The notes below the pieces were generated by a model. It was not told where the DNA came from, did no database searches, and was given only the letters and a program-made list of their open reading frames with translations. The position numbers and the translations under genes were made by a program. Shown piece by piece: positions 6,111 to 36,770 of a DNA stretch of 36,770 bases. The stretch covers positions 1 through 36,770 of the forward strand of contig CALWRN010000036.1 of the NCBI GenBank assembly GCA_944383975.1. The letters are read 5' to 3'. The number at the start of each line of letters is the position of its first letter. Positions within the stretch are counted from its first letter, which is position 1. The DNA comes from an uncultured Clostridia bacterium. GTDB taxonomy: Bacteria > Bacillota > Clostridia > Christensenellales > UBA1242.

Positions 6111-6196
6111 TATCCATAAAGAGTGTGCGAGGGACAGCCCCTTTGACCACACAGCAACCTGATTCTTTTCAAGGTGCTAAAGGCTGACCGATGGTA
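6111..6196 (+). ncRNA. SAM riboswitch aptamer (S-box / SAM-I family, short P4 variant)
   Basis: The conserved core is plain: AAGAG before P2, GAGGGACAGCCC (6129-6140), TTTGACC, AGCAACC, the P3 arms CCT...AAGG and GGTGCTAA (6173-6180). P2 is closed by TGTG / CACA. P1 is short: CCAT (6114-6117) with ATGG (6191-6194). P4 seems reduced to GG-CTGA-CC (6182-6189), much shorter than in textbook S-box aptamers, which suggests a variant of the SAM-I/SAM-IV clan. The S-box binds S-adenosylmethionine and switches off methionine/SAM genes; the metK gene downstream fits that role. Confidence 0.9.
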
Positions 6197-6242
6197 GAGT
6201 TATATTTAAGAGTAATCCCATCGGAGACGATGGGGTTTTTTA
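6188..6242 (+). promoter_or_regulatory. SAM riboswitch expression platform (antiterminator / terminator)
   Basis: Terminator: CCCATCG (6217-6223), GAGA loop, CGATGGG (6228-6234), then GTTTTTT. Antiterminator: CCGATGG (6188-6194) is complementary to CCATCGG (6218-6224) and would destroy the terminator stem. The ATGG of this strand is also the 3' arm of P1, so SAM binding (P1 formed) frees the terminator: a transcriptional OFF switch. A further segment, CTCTTTATGGA (6249-6259), beyond the T-run is a perfect complement of the aptamer 5' end (6113-6123). Confidence 0.85.
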
Positions 6243-6552: not shown

Positions 6553-7644
6553 ATGAGAAAAATTATAACTAGCGAAAGTGTAAATATAGGACATCCAGAT
6601 AAAACTTGTGATTATATTTCAGATGCTTTTTTAGATGAAGCATTAGAACAAGATAAAGACAGTCAAATGGCTGTAGAATGTGCAATTAAAAATGATAAAT
6701 TGTTTATATATGGAGAAGCTACAACAAAAGCGAAAATTGACTATGATAATATTGCTAAAACAATTTTAAAAAATATAGGATATAAAAATGATTTTAAAAT
6801 TATAAAAGAAATAAGCAATCAGAGCCCAGATATCAATCAAGCGGTGGTTAAAAATGAGTTATGTGCTAATGATCAAGGAATGGTTTATGGATATGCAACA
6901 AATGAAACAAAGGAATATATGCCTTTACCAATAGTGTTGGCACATAAACTTATGATGCAATATGAAAAATTTAGAAAAAACAACGAAGAATTTTTTGCAG
7001 ATGCTAAAAGTCAAGTTTCTGTTTGTTATGATGAAAAAAAGCCTATTTATATTGATACAATTTTAATAAGCGTTTCTCATAGTGAAAAAATAAGCATTGA
7101 AGAAATTAAAAAACAAATAATTGAAAACGTTATTAATAATGTTTTATTAAGCTATAAAGATTTGGTCAATGACAAAACGAAGTTTATTGTAAATCCAAGT
7201 GGGAAATTTACGATTTGGGGATCTTTTAGTGATAGTGGCTGTGTTGGACGAAAAATAGTTGTTGATACTTATGGTGGTATAGGACGTGTTGGTGGCGGAT
7301 GTTTTAGTTCAAAGAATGCAACTAAAATTGACAGATCTGGGGCATACTATGCACGATATGTTGCAAAAAATATTGTTGCAAATGGTTTTGCAGATAAATG
7401 TGAAATTCAAATAAGTTATGCTATTGGAATTGCAAAGCCGATTAGTTTTTATGTAGATTGTTTCAACACCAATCATATAGAGATGACAAAAATTCTTGAT
7501 ATAATCAACAAAAATTTTGATTTTTCACTTAGCAATATAATAAATGAATTGGATTTATTAAAACCAATATACAAAAAAACAGCCTGTTACGGACATTTCG
7601 GGAGAGATGAATTTTCTTGGGAAAGGATAAAAAATCTTACTTGA
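6553..7644 (+). CDS. metK: S-adenosylmethionine synthetase (divergent)
   Basis: MetK makes SAM from ATP and methionine. The three-part fold is recognisable throughout: GHPDK at residues 13-17 (His14 and Asp16 as in the E. coli enzyme), NDQGMVYGYA, DAKSQVSV, VNPSGKF, GRKIVVDTYGG, GGGCFSSKNATKIDRS (both lysines and the aspartate kept) and C-terminal YGHFGRDEFSWE. At 363 residues it is somewhat short, and several normally near-invariant positions differ: Ile12 for Glu in EGHPDK, Tyr for Gln in CDxISDA, Asn for Gly in GDQG, Trp in FTIWG for the usual Gly. It is therefore a diverged but probably active enzyme; a paralogue of changed function cannot be excluded. It sits in a riboswitch operon, with no terminator before the GNAT gene. 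Confidence 0.9.
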   Translation: MRKIITSESVNIGHPDKTCDYISDAFLDEALEQDKDSQMAVECAIKNDKLFIYGEATTKAKIDYDNIAKTILKNIGYKNDFKIIKEISNQSPDINQAVVKNELCANDQGMVYGYATNETKEYMPLPIVLAHKLMMQYEKFRKNNEEFFADAKSQVSVCYDEKKPIYIDTILISVSHSEKISIEEIKKQIIENVINNVLLSYKDLVNDKTKFIVNPSGKFTIWGSFSDSGCVGRKIVVDTYGGIGRVGGGCFSSKNATKIDRSGAYYARYVAKNIVANGFADKCEIQISYAIGIAKPISFYVDCFNTNHIEMTKILDIINKNFDFSLSNIINELDLLKPIYKKTACYGHFGRDEFSWERIKNLT

Positions 7645-12519: not shown

Positions 12520-15500
12520 TTATTTTTTATTTTTATTTTTCTTTTTCCTTAAAATAATACATATTATAGTGATGATAATTAAAAGTGCAATACTTCCAAA
12601 TATAATCAAGTATATTGTCACTTGGTTTTCTGGATCATTTTGATTTTGTGCATTTTCATCTATAATGGCAGTAATTTCAGTATAGTATTTATCAAAGATT
12701 ATTTTTTCATCTGTATCATAAATATCTCCAGCATAATACCAACCAATTATATTGTTTTTATTTGTGTCAACCAAAGAATTTAAAGTTATTGTTTCACCAT
12801 CAGAGAATAGTGTTGTGGTTGTGATTACTTCATCTTTAATAACTATTTTAAGATCAAAAAGAAGTTGATTTAAAACTGCAACAATATTAGCATTTTGTGT
12901 TATTGTTATTGTTTCACCAGGGTTATAATTGTTATTAGCATATTCCCAAGATATAAATTGATATTTATTTGAAATATCTATTGTTGGTAAGGTGTAAGTG
13001 TCACCATAACTAAATTCTTGATCAATAGGGGTGGTTTTTCCGGCGATTGTTATTCCTATTTGATATGTTGCTTTTGCTGATTTTATTTCTTTTTTATTTT
13101 CTGAAAGATAAAGAGCGTATTTTGATGCTAATTTAGGCGATATTTTTATGTGCTCTTTAAAATCTTCTGACATTTGTGAGTTGTTGATTAATAAAGTTTG
13201 ATCAAAGCCCTTGTCTATGTAGATTGTTGCGTTTATGTTTGTTAAAGAACCATTTAATTTCAAAGTATTTGATCCATTTATATACATTTCGCCTTCAATT
13301 TTATTATCATTTACATTAAGGGTGATAGAACCACTATTTAAGTATAAAACATCACCACTGTTAGATTTATTTGAATAGATATCTGTGTTTGTTGCTGTTA
13401 TAGAACTATATTGATTTGCATATATTGTTGCACCTTGGACGGTTGCGGAATTTTTTGTTAATACACATTTAGAAAAGGTTATTTGTGAATAACTTTGTCC
13501 ATAGAGAACACCTGCATATTGGGCAGTATTTTCTTCAAAAGTGCAATCTTCAAATTTTACCGTTCCGTATGCAAAACAAACACCACCAAAGCCACTAGCA
13601 CTATTTTGAATAAAATTACAATTGGAAATTGTGCATGTGTTTTGATTATTAATAAAAGCACCCGCACTTGAAGCCTTATTTGCGATAAAACTAGAATTTT
13701 TTATATCTGCTTTGCACTTTAATTCAAGGGCTCCACCATTTCCATTTACAGAATTATTTGAAAATGTGCATAAATTTATGTTGATTGTTGCATTATTTGA
13801 AGTTGTTATAGCACCACCATTATCTGTTGCTTTGTTGTTAAAAAATTCTGTGTTTTCAAAATTTGCAATACCTTCTGCGACATAGATTACACCTCCAGCA
13901 GAGATATTAGAATTAAAATTTCTAAAAATAACATTTTTTGTTGTTAAATTGCCATTTGAGACAATAACTCTTTGACCAAGTTTTGCATTATTTCCTTCAA
14001 AAATTATTTTATTTTGGTCATTTCCTTCAATTACGAAAGTTTTTGATTGGTTTATTGCAAAAATATTATAAGAAGTTGTCTTGTAGAGAGTTATATCTTT
14101 TGTAACATTTGAATCTATTTTTAAAGTTAAATTTTTATCTATTATAATGTTATTTTCTTTAATATCATTTAAAAGATATATGGTATCATTATCATTTGCG
14201 TTATTTACTGCTTCCTTAAGACTTGTATAATAACTATCATTGATTCTGCATACTGTATTTCTTTGATTTGTGAATACATCGCTATAATCGGTTGCGTTCA
14301 GCCTTCTATCATAAGCTCTTATTTTATAATTAGGGGTATATCCATCTTCATAGGTTTTTGTATCGGTATAGCAATTTGAATTTGTAAAAGCTATAACCTT
14401 ATATCCGTCTATATCATTACCTTCAAGAATTTCATAACCAAGATGTCCTATGTTGTCCTGTTTATAAGGCATAAGAATATTATAACCGTTTTCATTTTTT
14501 TCAATGGAAATGATGTTTATTTTCATTGAATTATTGTAAATAGAAAGTTTGTCACCATATTCAAGAAGGTATGTATAAGTCATATTATCAACATACCAAA
14601 ACTTTAGTTGTTTGTTGATTATTGTGCCGTTATCATGCAGACCTTGCATAGCAGATTTAAAAGCCTCACTTGCTGATGATTCAACAAACATTGTTCCACC
14701 AAGAGCATATCCATATCTTTCAAAGTAATACGAAAGGTCAATACCGGTTACAATACTGCTGAAATAAACTTGCTTTTCAACTTTATTCATTCCTTTTGCT
14801 GTAGAATTGCGATACATATTTTCAAGTTTGCCCCAGTAGCCGGGGAAAATACTTTCTATATTCCACCAAATTGCTGCATTTCCAGAATTCTTTTGCCAAA
14901 CATTTGCAGGATTGACATCATCAGGAGCCATTAAGTTTGTTATTGTTGAATGATTTTCTCTTGAGCCAGTTTTTTCATTTGCTGATTTATTAAAGTTAGA
15001 AACCATATTGTTTGTTGTCTCTGACACAACGCGTTCACTTATATCCATCATGTGTCCTAATTCATGAGTCATGCCCCAGCCAAAATTTTCTCCAGTTAAG
15101 GCTGTGTCCTGCCAGTTGTTTGTTTGGATTCCAACGTGTTCAGTATAAGCATAGGCTGCTGCATATGGTTGCATAATTCTTATATTGACATTAAGATGTT
15201 CAGCTCTGTTGTCGTAGTTTAAATCTTCTTTTTCAAAATTTACACCTTCAAAAATGTATAAACTTTTAAGATAGTTATCCCAATTTTCACAAACTTTTTC
15301 AACGCTATAATTTTGTGATATATAAAAATCATAAGCACGCGATGCTTGAACGGTGAGAATAACTTTATTAGAAACTATTTCAGTTAGGTCCAAATAATTT
15401 TCTGGTTGTAAGTCTAAAAGTTCGTTGTAGTCTCTTAAATTTTTTTCATATTTAATTTCGTCTTGTCCCATATAAAATACAGGGAATAGAGTGCCACCTT

Positions 15501-16704
15501 CAATATAAATTTTCACATCTTGACTTTGTTCGTTATTTGTGTAAGGATTTATTAAATAGATTGGACCTCCAGCCAATGTTTTAGTTGACCAAGATGAATT
15601 GTAAAGGTTAGGGGTAGAGATACTGTTTTCACCAATCTGAAGTGAATAATTTCCACTTTTCCATTTATCCCATCTGCCTTGGTGTTGTGTAAATACAATT
15701 TGTGGTAATGGATCTGTTGATTTTGCATCAACATATATTGTGATTGTTTCATTAGGTTTTGCATATATTCCAGTTACTTGTCTATTTGTTCCTTGCCAAA
15801 CCATATCTAAATCATATCTTGCATAATCCGAAATATTTCCAACTTGTTTTATATATTTACCTTTTGAGTTAGGATTGGTTGAAAATTCTCTATATCTTAT
15901 ATCAAATGTTAAATTTCCATTTAAAATATCTTTTGCTCTTTGAATATTTTGTTGCACTTTGCTTGGAATATAATTAAGTTTATTGATTTCTTCTTCTAAT
16001 TTGTTAATAGAAGATAAAGAGTTGTATTGAGGAATAATTGTGCTTTTCTTATAATCAGAAAATAGATTTCTTGCATAACTTAAAATATCTTCCTCAGGTT
16101 TAAAGAAAATTATTTCGCTGGCAGAACAATGTTGTGTTAAATTGTTGTTTACTTGTGTATATTCAAATTTGAAATATTTGAATGTGTAAGTCTTATTTAA
16201 ATTATAAATCAGAATGTTTGTATTTAATTCAGAAGATGCTTCTCCAATTTTTTGATATTCATTTCCGTCATTTGATATATAGAATGTTGCAGTCAAAGGA
16301 AAGCCTTTCAATTTGTCGTCTCTTCTTGTTGCAAATATCAATCGGTCAACATCTACTTGCTTATTAAATTCAATCAAAATATAATTTTTATAAGTGTTGC
16401 TATTTACAATATTTGTTTCCCAAAATGTATTAAAGTTTAAGTCAAAGGCATTTGAAAGCACATTATTTGGATAATTTCCACCATTATTTGAATAGTTTTG
16501 TATGTATTCATCATTTTCAGTATTAGTTGTTATTGCATAGTTACTTAAATAATCAGTTTGTAAAAATTCACTTGATGTAGTTGTGTAACTTACATCAAAA
16601 TTAACATTTTCATCTGCATTTGTTGAAATGTAAGATGGGTTATTAAAAAAAATAGACACACCCAAAAACATTGCAAAGAAAATTGCAATAATATATTTTT
16701 TCAT
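12520..16704 (-). CDS. Giant cell-surface M60-type (mucin-directed) metalloprotease with F5/8C and beta-helix regions
   Basis: 1394 residues. Order: signal peptide (1-30); an F5/8 type C (discoidin, carbohydrate-binding) domain about 70-210; a linker; an M60-like/enhancin peptidase region about 280-770 with the zinc motif HELGH (547-551) and a downstream glutamate as in the M60 pattern HExxHx(8-28)E; a right-handed beta-helix about 840-1190 built of GGAI/GNGGAL-type repeats like those of chlamydial Pmp proteins; two beta-rich repeats about 1225-1340 (FSYGDTYTLPTI, YQFISWEY); and a C-terminal membrane helix with a KKKNKNKK tail, no LPxTG. M60 enzymes cleave O-glycoproteins such as mucins, with lectin-like modules holding the glycans, so this is probably a host-mucin or glycoprotein attack enzyme anchored on the surface. 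Its promoter carries a palindromic site in the spacer. Confidence 0.88.
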   Translation of the reverse strand: MKKYIIAIFFAMFLGVSIFFNNPSYISTNADENVNFDVSYTTTSSEFLQTDYLSNYAITTNTENDEYIQNYSNNGGNYPNNVLSNAFDLNFNTFWETNIVNSNTYKNYILIEFNKQVDVDRLIFATRRDDKLKGFPLTATFYISNDGNEYQKIGEASSELNTNILIYNLNKTYTFKYFKFEYTQVNNNLTQHCSASEIIFFKPEEDILSYARNLFSDYKKSTIIPQYNSLSSINKLEEEINKLNYIPSKVQQNIQRAKDILNGNLTFDIRYREFSTNPNSKGKYIKQVGNISDYARYDLDMVWQGTNRQVTGIYAKPNETITIYVDAKSTDPLPQIVFTQHQGRWDKWKSGNYSLQIGENSISTPNLYNSSWSTKTLAGGPIYLINPYTNNEQSQDVKIYIEGGTLFPVFYMGQDEIKYEKNLRDYNELLDLQPENYLDLTEIVSNKVILTVQASRAYDFYISQNYSVEKVCENWDNYLKSLYIFEGVNFEKEDLNYDNRAEHLNVNIRIMQPYAAAYAYTEHVGIQTNNWQDTALTGENFGWGMTHELGHMMDISERVVSETTNNMVSNFNKSANEKTGSRENHSTITNLMAPDDVNPANVWQKNSGNAAIWWNIESIFPGYWGKLENMYRNSTAKGMNKVEKQVYFSSIVTGIDLSYYFERYGYALGGTMFVESSASEAFKSAMQGLHDNGTIINKQLKFWYVDNMTYTYLLEYGDKLSIYNNSMKINIISIEKNENGYNILMPYKQDNIGHLGYEILEGNDIDGYKVIAFTNSNCYTDTKTYEDGYTPNYKIRAYDRRLNATDYSDVFTNQRNTVCRINDSYYTSLKEAVNNANDNDTIYLLNDIKENNIIIDKNLTLKIDSNVTKDITLYKTTSYNIFAINQSKTFVIEGNDQNKIIFEGNNAKLGQRVIVSNGNLTTKNVIFRNFNSNISAGGVIYVAEGIANFENTEFFNNKATDNGGAITTSNNATININLCTFSNNSVNGNGGALELKCKADIKNSSFIANKASSAGAFINNQNTCTISNCNFIQNSASGFGGVCFAYGTVKFEDCTFEENTAQYAGVLYGQSYSQITFSKCVLTKNSATVQGATIYANQYSSITATNTDIYSNKSNSGDVLYLNSGSITLNVNDNKIEGEMYINGSNTLKLNGSLTNINATIYIDKGFDQTLLINNSQMSEDFKEHIKISPKLASKYALYLSENKKEIKSAKATYQIGITIAGKTTPIDQEFSYGDTYTLPTIDISNKYQFISWEYANNNYNPGETITITQNANIVAVLNQLLFDLKIVIKDEVITTTTLFSDGETITLNSLVDTNKNNIIGWYYAGDIYDTDEKIIFDKYYTEITAIIDENAQNQNDPENQVTIYLIIFGSIALLIIITIICIILRKKKNKNKK

Positions 16705-26562: not shown

Positions 26563-28167
26563 ATGGAAGAAATATCAAGATATCATAGACTATATAAGTT
26601 TGAAAATGGAGCAACTTTAATTTATTACAAACATAATGTAAATAATACAACTCAATTTGTTGTAGGTTTTATTGGAGGTTCTCGCAGAGATGGAAAAATA
26701 AAAGGAACTGCACATTTTTTAGAGCATATGTTATGCAAAGAAACACCTAAATTCACAGCAACACAATTTAATAAATTTGTAAGGAATAATGATATAAAAT
26801 CAAATGCGTTTACATCTGAAAATTATTTAGTTTTATATGCTGATACACCAAATTCAAATTTAACTGAAACTTGCAAAGTCTATAGAAAACTATTGACAAA
26901 CAAAAATTTCAATCAAGGATCTATTGATTTAGAGCGTATGGCAATAAATCAAGAAATTTTGATGTCAAAAGAAGAAGATGGAGATTTTGAAAACATAAAA
27001 AGATTAATTCAAAAAAATTTTAGGGAAAATGCAATATTAGGGACAAGTAAATCTATTTCAAAAATAAATGAAAAAGTATTGCAAGATTATATTGACAAAA
27101 ACTTTGTTTCAGAAAATTTAGTTATTTCTGTTGTAAGCAATTTGGAATTTGATCAAGTCAAAGATATTGTAGAAAAGAATTTTGTTCATTATTTCCCATC
27201 TAACCCTGAATTGAAAAATAAGCCTGTTAAGGCGCTTTACTATTCTCCAGCAAATATAATAGTTGCAAATTATATAAAAGATTGTCAAACAATAGACATA
27301 GAAGTTTCTTATGGTGTAAAACAAACGGAAAGAGAGGCAAATTTATATTCTTTAGTAGAGGACTATATTTTTAACGGCTTCAGTGGAAAGTTATTGAAAA
27401 GATTGCGTTCAGATAAGGGTTTAGTTTATAGTGCAAGTTTTTATCCTTTATGTTTACAAAACAATTTATCATTTAAATCTATTAGTGCGTCAACAAGCAA
27501 AAAACATATTAATGAAGTTATTGACACTTTGGGAGAGATAATCGCAGATATTGTTAAAAATGGAATTTCAGAAAGAGATTATAAAGATTTTAAAAAGATG
27601 GTCGCTTCTGTTGAAGAAAGAAGATCAGGAATAAAAACAATAAGTCCTTTGGTTCTTCTTGATAGATATGTTGATAATAGTGAAATATTCTTTAATAATC
27701 AAATTCATGTTGTAAAAAATTTAACCCGAGAAGAAATAAATAATTATTTAAAGAAAGTTTATAAAAAAGCAAATGTAATAGTTAGTATTGAAGGGAATTT
27801 TGATCCTAAGACTTTATATACCGTTCACGAAATAGAAAGACGTTTGCATGCAAAGCAATCAAAACTTCTTTATCATAGACCTAGTGAGATGATGGTTGTG
27901 CCCCACGATTATTCTTTTTTGAATAAACACATATCTGATTATTATTTACTTAAATTAGATGAAAGTGGATCTTTAGGATTTATAGATGGAAATTACTTCT
28001 CTAATATAGTATTTGAAAAGTTGCAAAAAGCATTACTTAATTCAAAAGCAAACTCACAAGTAAAAGAACAAACAGAAAAAACTGAAAATTATGATATAGA
28101 ATTAGATAAAGGTGAAATGAAAATAACAGAAATAGATAATGATAGTATGAAGGAGATGCATAAATAA
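26563..28167 (+). CDS. M16-family (pitrilysin/insulinase-like) zinc peptidase
   Basis: 534 residues. The inverted zinc motif HFLEH is at residues 51-55, and the third ligand lies in a LERMAINQEI helix (about 122-131), so the enzyme should be active. The N-terminal M16 domain (about 10-180) is followed by the second, inactive M16_C domain (about 185-420; GFSGKLLKRLRSDKGLVYSASF is typical). Residues about 430-534 are an extension with a lysine/glutamate-rich tail that I do not recognise. No signal peptide, so cytoplasmic; likely a peptide-clearing or processing enzyme. Many Firmicutes carry adjacent M16 pairs, but here it is single. A good AAGGAAG precedes the ATG. Confidence 0.9.
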   Translation: MEEISRYHRLYKFENGATLIYYKHNVNNTTQFVVGFIGGSRRDGKIKGTAHFLEHMLCKETPKFTATQFNKFVRNNDIKSNAFTSENYLVLYADTPNSNLTETCKVYRKLLTNKNFNQGSIDLERMAINQEILMSKEEDGDFENIKRLIQKNFRENAILGTSKSISKINEKVLQDYIDKNFVSENLVISVVSNLEFDQVKDIVEKNFVHYFPSNPELKNKPVKALYYSPANIIVANYIKDCQTIDIEVSYGVKQTEREANLYSLVEDYIFNGFSGKLLKRLRSDKGLVYSASFYPLCLQNNLSFKSISASTSKKHINEVIDTLGEIIADIVKNGISERDYKDFKKMVASVEERRSGIKTISPLVLLDRYVDNSEIFFNNQIHVVKNLTREEINNYLKKVYKKANVIVSIEGNFDPKTLYTVHEIERRLHAKQSKLLYHRPSEMMVVPHDYSFLNKHISDYYLLKLDESGSLGFIDGNYFSNIVFEKLQKALLNSKANSQVKEQTEKTENYDIELDKGEMKITEIDNDSMKEMHK

Positions 28168-35625: not shown

Positions 35626-35702
35626 AGAGATGTAGCTCAGCCGGTTAGAGCACCACCCTGATAAGGTGGGGGTCGGTGGTTCGAGTCCACTCATCTCTAC
35701 CA
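35626..35702 (+). tRNA. tRNA-Ile (anticodon GAT), CCA encoded
   Basis: Cloverleaf: acceptor AGAGATG / CATCTCT, A73, CCA; D-arm with GCTCAG...TTAGAGC; anticodon arm CCACC-CTGATAA-GGTGG, anticodon GAT; T-arm GGTGGTTCGAGTCCACT. It reads AUU and AUC; AUA decoding needs the CAT tRNA made by TilS. Confidence 0.97.
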
Positions 35703-35704
35703 AT

Positions 35705-35732
35705 AAGAAGTGTTTATAACACTTCTTTTTAA
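35705..35732 (+). terminator. Terminator after tRNA-Ile
   Basis: AAGAAGTGTT / AACACTTCTT with TAT loop, then TTT. Confidence 0.9.
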
Positions 35733-35810
35733 TTTTAACTTTAATGAATTTGAAAAATATTTACTATTGATTATGTTAAAAAACATCTAGCCAATTAAGT
35801 GCATAATGAT

Positions 35811-36047: not shown

Positions 36048-36076
36048 TTGCTTTTTATTTTTAAATATGCTATAAT
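36048..36076 (+). promoter_or_regulatory. Strong promoter of the large noncoding RNA
   Basis: TTGCTT (36048-36053), exactly 17 bp, TATAAT (36071-36076), plus TGC before it (extended -10). Predicted start about 36082-36084. Confidence 0.88.
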
Positions 36077-36080
36077 AATA

Positions 36081-36668
36081 ACGTACGAAGGTGCAGTATT
36101 CTAGTCATTATCTATATATTAGGAAGATGAAATGTATGGCATCGATGGCATATCTGTGAAGTTTCTGGTGTTTGCTTTGATTGCCCAAATTGGGGTAGAT
36201 GCTGGAAGTTAAGATTATTGGGCGCACTATAACGGCATATAGTACCCGACCCAATTTTCGTGGAGACTCAGCAGGGTGAATTGCTCACTCTCTGAGAAGA
36301 ACCTGCAATGCGGTAAAAGTCGTGTGCAGCGTAGCCTACTTTGAGTGGATATATGGGGATTAAGTATCAACGCACAAAATTTATTGGCCGATAAATATTG
36401 TGCCTGCTTATGAAACTATATCTGCAAAACAGGAGAATAATATATAGAAGTGTTAAGGAAAACTTCTAGACTGTTACACCTAAATTGTAGACATTATAAG
36501 GATTATAGTGTGTTCTAAGTGGCGATTCGGTGAAATGTCTTGCTTAAAAGGAAACTGCTTAAACGGTGACGTTGAGTGCGAGAATGGGAAATCCAACCGA
36601 ACCTATGACACAAGGTTTACTTATAATGTTGCCTTCTTATAGAGCCTATCAAGGGCTCTATATTTTTT
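36081..36668 (+). ncRNA. Large structured noncoding RNA, about 585 nt, class not assigned (ROOL/GOLLD/OLE-like candidate)
   Basis: A transcription unit with a strong promoter, an intrinsic terminator, no ORF of useful length on either strand and clearly higher G+C than its flanks (about 43-48% in several 60-nt lines against roughly 20-25% nearby). Many hairpins can be drawn: ACTATA/TATAGT (36226-36243), AGGGTGA/TCACTCT with CTCAG/CTGAG (36266-36295 region), GCACAA-ATTTAT / ATAAAT-TTGTGC (36372-36403), TAGAAGT/ACTTCTA (36445-36468), ACATTATAA/TTATAGTGT (36491-36511), AACG-GTGA-CGTT with a GNRA loop (36562-36573), AACCT/AGGTT (36600-36617). The ends pair: GAAGG (36087-36091) with CCTTC (36632-36636). 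tmRNA, RNase P, 6S and SRP signatures are absent. Length, tRNA neighbour and gut-type host fit ROOL (or GOLLD, OLE); identity is inference. Confidence 0.8.
36640..36668 (+). terminator. Terminator of the large noncoding RNA
   Basis: TAGAGCC (36640-36646) / GGCTCTA (36654-36660), 7-bp perfect stem, 7-nt loop, then TATTTTTT. A second hairpin, AAGAAACAT / ATGTTTCTT followed by TTT, lies just downstream (about 36675-36700). The window ends with AGGAG, probably the ribosome binding site of the next gene. Confidence 0.92.
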
Positions 36669-36770
36669 GAAATATAAGAAACATTTATATGTTTCTTTTG
36701 AATCTTATAAAACATTATAAAAAGTTTGTAATGTTTAATATTAATAATTAAAATAAATATTAGGAGAAAA

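What the first reader, a model, noticed from the sequence alone, without database searches (positions are those of the whole stretch)
36048..36668. Large ORF-less, highly structured transcription unit near tRNA-Ile: candidate ROOL/GOLLD/OLE-class or new large RNA
Seen: extended -10 promoter with exact 17-bp spacing, 7-bp stem terminator, about 585 nt between, no reading frame, raised G+C in a very AT-rich genome, at least seven local hairpins including a GNRA loop, and pairing of the two ends. Known: bacteria carry a few classes of very large RNAs (ROOL, GOLLD, OLE) of 500-800 nt, and ROOL/GOLLD often lie near tRNA genes in Firmicutes; some form multimeric cages, and their functions are open. 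Inference: this is one of these or a new class. No phage genes lie around it, so it would be a chromosomal copy.
Basis: partly seen in the sequence, partly recalled or inferred. Interest (0 to 1): 0.88.

Follow-up and report, generated by a model that had tools for sequence, protein, structure and literature searches.

The report
Portable OLE RNA and orphaned partners
This DNA encodes an OLE RNA, one of the largest known kinds of bacterial noncoding RNA, and its family tree shows that it likely jumped between related Clostridia together with its partner gene oapA, while relatives that lack the RNA keep orphan oapA genes in which one changed loop is predicted to mark where the RNA docks.

Summary
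The "ROOL/GOLLD/OLE-class or new large RNA" is an OLE RNA: Rfam RF01071, 371.9 bits (cut-off 50), E 6e-106, full model length. Promoter, terminator, raised G+C and lack of an ORF are real; stems covary in 29 relatives. The window is a whole contig that breaks just after the RNA; an exact 127-base overlap leads to the partner gene oapA1, 131 nt downstream. The RNA itself is a member of a known family, resembling the published "variant 1".

New is the context. OLE is patchy in the genus (29 of 112 genomes, each with oapA1). Its phylogeny rejects the housekeeping-gene tree (AU p = 9e-32), so promoter-OLE-terminator-oapA1 likely moves horizontally. At the ancestral locus the genus keeps another oapA without OLE; families f6 and f8 also have oapA without OLE. 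These orphans keep the DxxxD core. Of 47 residues conserved in OLE-linked OapA, only A84, M85 and A87 are lost in both large orphan groups; M85 is lost in 41 of 42 orphans. That loop is a candidate OLE-docking site. Function is inferred, not shown.

The parts
36048..36076 (+). predicted promoter: TTGCTT, 17 bp, TGC-TATAAT (extended -10)
   Evidence: sequence and conservation in 24 of 26 genus loci (TATAAT) and 21 of 26 (TGn); not listed by the sigma-70 scan because the -35 is weak
36072..36651 (+). OLE RNA (Rfam RF01071, model 1-616 of 616)
   Evidence: cmscan 371.9 bits, gathering 50, E 6.4e-106; covariation in 29 family sequences
36162..36208 (+). long OLE hairpin, 20 pairs, all canonical
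   Evidence: Rfam-derived structure; helix 2, 96.7% of cells paired
36490..36630 (+). 3' domain closed by 36490-36500/36620-36630, with 36509-36513/36608-36612 and 36526-36531/36596-36601; one consensus hairpin (model about 481-504) is missing
   Evidence: alignment; helices; the outermost helix has 8 of 11 pairs changed on both sides
36536..36585 (+). remaining hairpin of the 3' domain with internal loop and GUGA apical loop
   Evidence: helices 18-20
36638..36662 (+). predicted intrinsic terminator of OLE, followed by a T-run
   Evidence: terminator found in 21 of 26 genus loci
36644..36770 (+). contig end, identical over 127 bases to the start of contig G000:C22, where oapA1 (265 aa) starts at virtual coordinate 36783
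35626..35702 (+). tRNA-Ile (gat), neighbour and not a part of the unit
   Evidence: adjacency not conserved

Best explanation
Window 36072-36651 encodes an OLE RNA with a predicted promoter and terminator of its own, which likely works as a membrane ribonucleoprotein with the CNNM-type protein OapA1 encoded 131 nt downstream and would help the cell handle divalent-metal (Mg2+) stress. Shown by calls: family membership, covarying stems, the oapA1 neighbour across a contig break, patchy presence in the genus, and disagreement of the OLE tree with the housekeeping tree. Inferred: the unit promoter-OLE-terminator-oapA1 moves horizontally within the genus and inserts at different places. Inferred: OLE had been lost earlier at its ancestral place (spoIIIA-asp23-nusB-xseA-xseB-ispA-OLE-oapA), leaving an orphan OapA2 there. 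Inferred: the OLE-dependent part of OapA is the loop around A84-M85-x-A87, while DxxxD serves an OLE-independent (transport) core. Role in metal stress and membrane location are carried over from Halalkalibacterium halodurans work (PMC11332333, PMC12265935) and were not tested here.
For: RF01071 at 371.9 bits. 80 of 145 pairs changed on both sides, score 0.365 against 0.07-0.11 for slid versions and 0.182 for shuffles. oapA1 joined by a 127-base overlap. OLE in 29 of 112 genus genomes, a second, OapA1-type copy in 29 of 29 of them; 80 of the 83 others have one strong OapA copy, and in the 15 of those that I read it was OapA2. MpfA-type CorC in 1 of 29 OLE+ against 21 of 83 OLE- genomes, p = 0.013 without correction for kinship. 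AU test on 24 genomes: OLE data reject the housekeeping topology, p = 9e-32, and the reverse, p = 3e-50. In G016 OLE and OapA2 lie on one 225-kb contig, against mis-binning. Orphan loci: 13 in f6, 2 in f8, 1 in genus g46, 22 in g1, with no OLE by nhmmer or, for 12 of them, cmscan. M85 in 121 of 124 OLE-linked against 1 of 42 orphan OapA; DxxxD in 166 of 166.
Against: No expression data. OapC (L7Ae family) was not found in 18 of 18 genus OLE+ genomes tested, though it is essential in H. halodurans (PMC9723947, passages). OapB is present in G000 (PDB 7k9b, E 5.9e-8), yet one 3'-domain hairpin of the RNA is missing. The loop of f6 and f8 orphans keeps its positive charge, so the signature is the A-M-x-A pattern and not charge. 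Three OLE-linked OapA lack M85 (L016, L258, L261); the last two have only weak OLE matches (74 and 94 bits), L016 has a full one. Orphans are few independent clades (three), so the motif contrast rests on three losses. The structural match of the OapA1 model to CNNM proteins is weak by E-value (best 4.7e-3, TM 0.39).
Confidence: 0.78

Rival explanations
1. Vertical inheritance with massive loss: the genus ancestor had both OapA copies and OLE, most species lost OLE-oapA1, and the tree conflict is an artefact of a short RNA.
For: OLE and OapA1 of the genus form one clade each (26 tips, 0.81; 28 tips plus one 'Bacilli' MAG, 0.98); many OLE nodes have low support, e.g. 22 around G006/G067.
Against: AU p = 9e-32; G040/G127/G133 join G007 (support 91) and G016 joins G000/G145 (83) in the OLE tree, while housekeeping genes place them far apart (100 for G040/G127/G133 with G006/G067). 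Different neighbours (tilS, groEL, tRNA-Ile, ribosomal genes).
Confidence: 0.1
2. The loop change in orphan OapA is relaxed constraint on a fast-evolving paralogue and says nothing about RNA docking.
For: OapA2 is divergent as a whole (34% identity of L063 to OapA1); only three independent losses; f8 keeps most of the loop, losing mainly M85, G92, A93.
Against: Of 47 sites conserved in OLE-linked OapA, only 84, 85 and 87 fall below 20% in both large orphan groups, whereas W22, D68, D112, G115, D116, G123, K162 and K166 stay at 92-100%. The 5 most contrasting of all columns, 85, 83, 84, 81, 87, lie in one loop.
Confidence: 0.35
3. A decayed or silent OLE gene.
For: Lower score than full-length OLEs of the order (up to 531 bits), one consensus hairpin missing.
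Against: The same hairpin is missing in the other family sequences aligned; strong covariation; conserved promoter and terminator; intact oapA1.
Confidence: 0.04
4. ROOL, GOLLD or a new class of large RNA.
For: Size, structure and a tRNA gene nearby.
Against: cmscan of 4227 families gives only OLE over this stretch.
Confidence: 0.01

Closest known systems
OLE RNA, full-length (Rfam RF01071; Halalkalibacterium halodurans, PMC11332333, PMC12265935)
   Same: Full-length covariance match, conserved 5' GGUGCAGUAUUCUAGUCA block, covarying stems, oapA directly downstream, OapB homologue in the genome
   Different: Not in the xseA-xseB-ispA place but in a variable one; one 3'-domain hairpin missing; no OapC found; a second OapA without RNA in the same genome; no CCUCC (anti-Shine-Dalgarno mimic) in the RNA
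OLE 'variant 1' of TANB77-type uncultured Clostridia (PMC11332333, sections read)
   Same: Small genome, shortened RNA, score between 310 and 390 bits (their model, so only a rough match), no OapC
   Different: OapB homologue is present; paper reports OLE and OapA as almost mutually inclusive and set variants aside, and the parts I read mention neither orphan OapA clades nor transfer within a genus
MpfA/CorC CNNM magnesium exporters
   Same: CNNM fold by model (MtCorB 7m1t best hit, prob 1.00 but E 4.7e-3); presence rarely overlaps with OLE in the genus
   Different: OapA has no CBS or CorC domain and has the DxxxD motif
ROOL and GOLLD large RNAs
   Same: Size class, ornate structure
   Different: No covariance match here

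Membership tests
OLE RNA (RF01071) | Covariance-model match over the whole model | tested here: met
   371.9 bits, gathering 50, 1-616 of 616
OLE RNA (RF01071) | Covarying consensus helices | tested here: met
   80 of 145 pairs changed on both sides, 87.7% cells paired against 38-47% for slid versions, 29 sequences; helices 6 and 8 (3 pairs) are not supported
OLE RNA (RF01071) | oapA next to the RNA | tested here: met
   127-base contig overlap, oapA1 131 nt downstream
OLE RNA (RF01071) | OapB in the genome | tested here: met
   86-aa protein between map and infA, best PDB match OapB 7k9b E 5.9e-8
OLE RNA (RF01071) | OapC (L7Ae) in the genome; reported absent in many OLE species, so not required | tested here: not met
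   PF01248: 0 of 18 genus OLE+ genomes including G000, 8 of 9 from other families
OLE RNA (RF01071) | Membrane-bound RNP, stress phenotype | not testable with these tools
   needs experiments
OLE variant 1 (TANB77 type) | Shortened P7-P9, lost OapB site, TANB77 taxonomy | tested here: inconclusive
ROOL / GOLLD | Covariance-model match | tested here: not met
   Only OLE matched the stretch at gathering score
OapA | DxxxD motif, small CNNM-like membrane protein without CBS domains | tested here: met
   OapA1 and orphan OapA: DxxxD in 166 of 166; CNNM match weak, below the Pfam cut-off

The most novel reading that the evidence does not exclude
OLE RNA is a detachable, portable regulator: in this order it has been lost at least three times while its membrane partner OapA lived on as a stand-alone DxxxD protein that dropped only the RNA-docking loop (A84-M85-x-A87), and it has come back by horizontal transfer of a self-contained promoter-OLE-terminator-oapA cassette that restores the docking-competent partner beside the orphan.
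Probability: 0.45. Interest if true: 0.78.

Novelty: new variant of a known kind. Interest (0 to 1): 0.58.

Why it matters
OLE is one of the most complex RNAs of unknown function. Which OapA residues contact it is open: a cytoplasmic cluster of positive residues has been speculated about (PMC12265935, passages). Natural RNA-less OapAs point to three residues, not charge, and give ready controls. Transfer of OLE with oapA alone suggests that these two parts are enough to be useful in a new genome, without OapC. Orphan OapA also qualifies the published view that OLE and OapA may never occur apart (PMC11332333).

Tried and rejected
ROOL/GOLLD and a new class: rejected by cmscan. Decayed gene: rejected (covariation, promoter, terminator). 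Hidden OLE at orphan loci: nhmmer with 31 OLE seeds, cmscan at gathering score on 12 loci (nothing) and at E 0.01 on 6 (only L20 leaders). tRNA as a fixed integration site: not supported. Hairpin at 35664-35803 matched HPnc0260 antisense RNA; it overlaps tRNA-Ile and was not followed. An early count of 0 of 42 orphans with M85 was wrong (1 of 42); the Fisher value for it used the wrong count and is not cited. Independent orphan OapA elsewhere: in 391 class genomes only G498, G509 and G604, 61-77% complete, have a strong OapA without an OLE match outside the own order. Reverse exceptions: G112 and G191 have OLE without an OapA match. Paper searches for orphan OapA or horizontal OLE (CC-licensed PMC papers only) showed none; Harris 2018 is not held. 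Papers: PMC11332333 sections 4 (two of three parts), 9, 11 and outline; PMC12265935, PMC9723947, PMC12054373, PMC10898510 passages; others only in listings.

Full report
What it is. cmscan against Rfam 15 gives one match over the reported stretch, RF01071 OLE, at window 36072-36651 (+), 371.9 bits with a gathering score of 50, covering model positions 1-616. It is the only copy in the genome (1,125,277 bases, 71 contigs, 94% complete). The Rfam structure, carried onto 29 OLE sequences of the same family by MAFFT, has 87.7% of cells paired, 80 of 145 pairs changed on both sides, and a covariation score of 0.365; slid controls give 0.07-0.11 and shuffles 0.182. Helices 6 and 8 (3 pairs) fail. 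One consensus hairpin of the 3' domain is missing, as it is in the other family rows of the alignment.

The partner. The window is a whole contig (C36). Its last 127 bases equal the first 127 of contig C22, where oapA1 (265 aa) begins 131 nt after the OLE model ends. OLE lies at or near contig ends in several relatives too (G021, G048, G055, G070, G123), so OLE may be under-called in draft genomes. The AlphaFold2 model of OapA1 has mean pLDDT 78.7; its best PDB match is the CNNM protein MtCorB, probability 1.00 but E 4.7e-3 and TM 0.39. OapB: an 86-aa protein between map and infA matches PDB OapB (7k9b) at 5.9e-8. OapC: none found in 18 of 18 genus OLE+ genomes tested out of 29, none in 3 of 3 other OLE+ genomes of the family, found in 8 of 9 from other families.

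Distribution. In the genus 29 of 112 genomes have OLE (23 of 72 good ones). All 29 have a second OapA copy, which I read as OapA1 type in each. Of the 83 without OLE, 80 have one strong OapA copy, two have none and one a weak match; the 15 that I read were all of the other type, OapA2. CorC/MpfA is found in 1 of 29 OLE+ (a 174-aa fragment in G158) and 21 of 83 OLE- genomes (p = 0.013, kinship not corrected). This agrees with the published anticorrelation (PMC11332333).

The ancestral place. In other families of the order, OLE and oapA follow spoIIIAF-AG-AH, asp23, nusB, xseA, xseB, ispA (e.g. L105, L107, L109, L117, L278); in genus g48 of the same family the order is xseB-OLE-oapA (L262). In the genus of the window the same place holds oapA2 without OLE, in OLE+ and OLE- species (22 loci). 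Thirteen f6 loci have ispA and oapA overlapping or at most 102 bp apart, and two f8 loci 91 bp apart: no room for a 600-nt RNA. nhmmer and cmscan found no OLE there. A tree of 170 OapA cores puts the family in one clade (0.965) with two halves: OLE-linked (g1 OapA1, g48, g49, plus two outside records L190 and L191) and orphan (g1 OapA2 with g46, 0.944). The f6 orphans form a third group (0.915), f8 a fourth near OLE-linked sequences.

Movement. For 24 genomes I compared OLE with nine housekeeping proteins of the ancestral locus. OLE data reject the housekeeping tree (AU p = 9e-32) and the housekeeping data reject the OLE tree (3e-50). G016 takes OLE from the G000/G145 group, G040/G127/G133 from the G007 group, and G006/G067 fall among other genomes, although their housekeeping genes lie far away. 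Some OLE nodes are weak (support 22 for the node with G006 and G067). In G016 both OLE and OapA2 lie on one 225-kb contig, which speaks against mis-binning. Promoter and terminator travel with the RNA (TATAAT 24 of 26, terminator 21 of 26).

The loop. Alignment of 124 OLE-linked and 42 orphan OapA (numbering of G000 OapA1): D68, D112, G115, D116 are the same in all 166. M85 is present in 121 of 124 linked and 1 of 42 orphan. Among 47 sites conserved by class in at least 90% of linked proteins, only 84, 85 and 87 drop below 20% in both OapA2 and f6; f8 keeps 84 and 87 but lost M85, G92 and A93. The model places the loop between the second and third long helix, with high confidence (mean 97 for residues 81-90); that it faces the cytosol is taken from the published topology, not tested. 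Positive charge is reduced in OapA2 but kept in f6 and f8. The three linked proteins without M85 are L016 (with a full OLE, a true exception), L258 and L261 (weak OLE matches of 74 and 94 bits). The published PM1 mutant removes the two aspartates of DxxxD (PMC9723947, passage), which orphans keep. I therefore read DxxxD as an OLE-independent core and the A-M-x-A loop as an OLE-dependent site; this is inference from three independent losses.

Limits. Across the class sample OLE and OapA are almost always together, so orphans seem special to this order as far as sampled.

Noticed in passing
L064:6678-8471 (G010), L065:4337-6190 (G037), L066:9215-10348 (G042): OapA1 is fused at its C-terminus to a PF01663 phosphodiesterase/nucleotide pyrophosphatase domain in two genomes (597 and 617 aa; E 1.2e-20 in G010); in G042 the phosphodiesterase is a separate gene next to oapA1, 58% identical to the fused part.
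   Followed up: partly
L067:6494-8008 (-) (G054): A Ro60 (TROVE plus vWA) protein gene, E 4.5e-32, lies between OLE and oapA1; Ro proteins bind noncoding RNA (recalled). Seen in this genome only.
   Followed up: partly
L190:5298-6549: A MAG labelled Bacilli (RGIG6178, sheep rectum) has OLE and oapA that place next to or within those of this genus (0.908 and 0.978): transfer across classes or a wrong label.
   Followed up: partly
window 35664-35803 (-): Rfam HPnc0260 antisense RNA match, 64.5 bits (gathering 59), overlapping tRNA-Ile; probably spurious.
   Followed up: no
window 6111-6197 and 6553-7644: SAM riboswitch (52.1 bits) upstream of an ORF that looks like S-adenosylmethionine synthetase (by eye).
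   Followed up: no
window 12520-16704 (-): 1394-aa protein with an M60-like peptidase N-terminal domain and weak polymorphic-membrane-protein repeats.
   Followed up: no
window 26563-28167: M16 peptidase on the same contig; M16-type YmfH/MlpA are listed as OLE-correlated in PMC11332333.
   Followed up: no
L258 and L261: OapA with M85 changed to R or K beside OLE matches of only 74 and 94 bits by nhmmer: perhaps losses in progress.
   Followed up: no
L063:4558-4679, L084:5808-5938, L100:4967-5082, L101:5908-6029: L20 leader-like RNA below its cut-off between oapA2 and infC.
   Followed up: no
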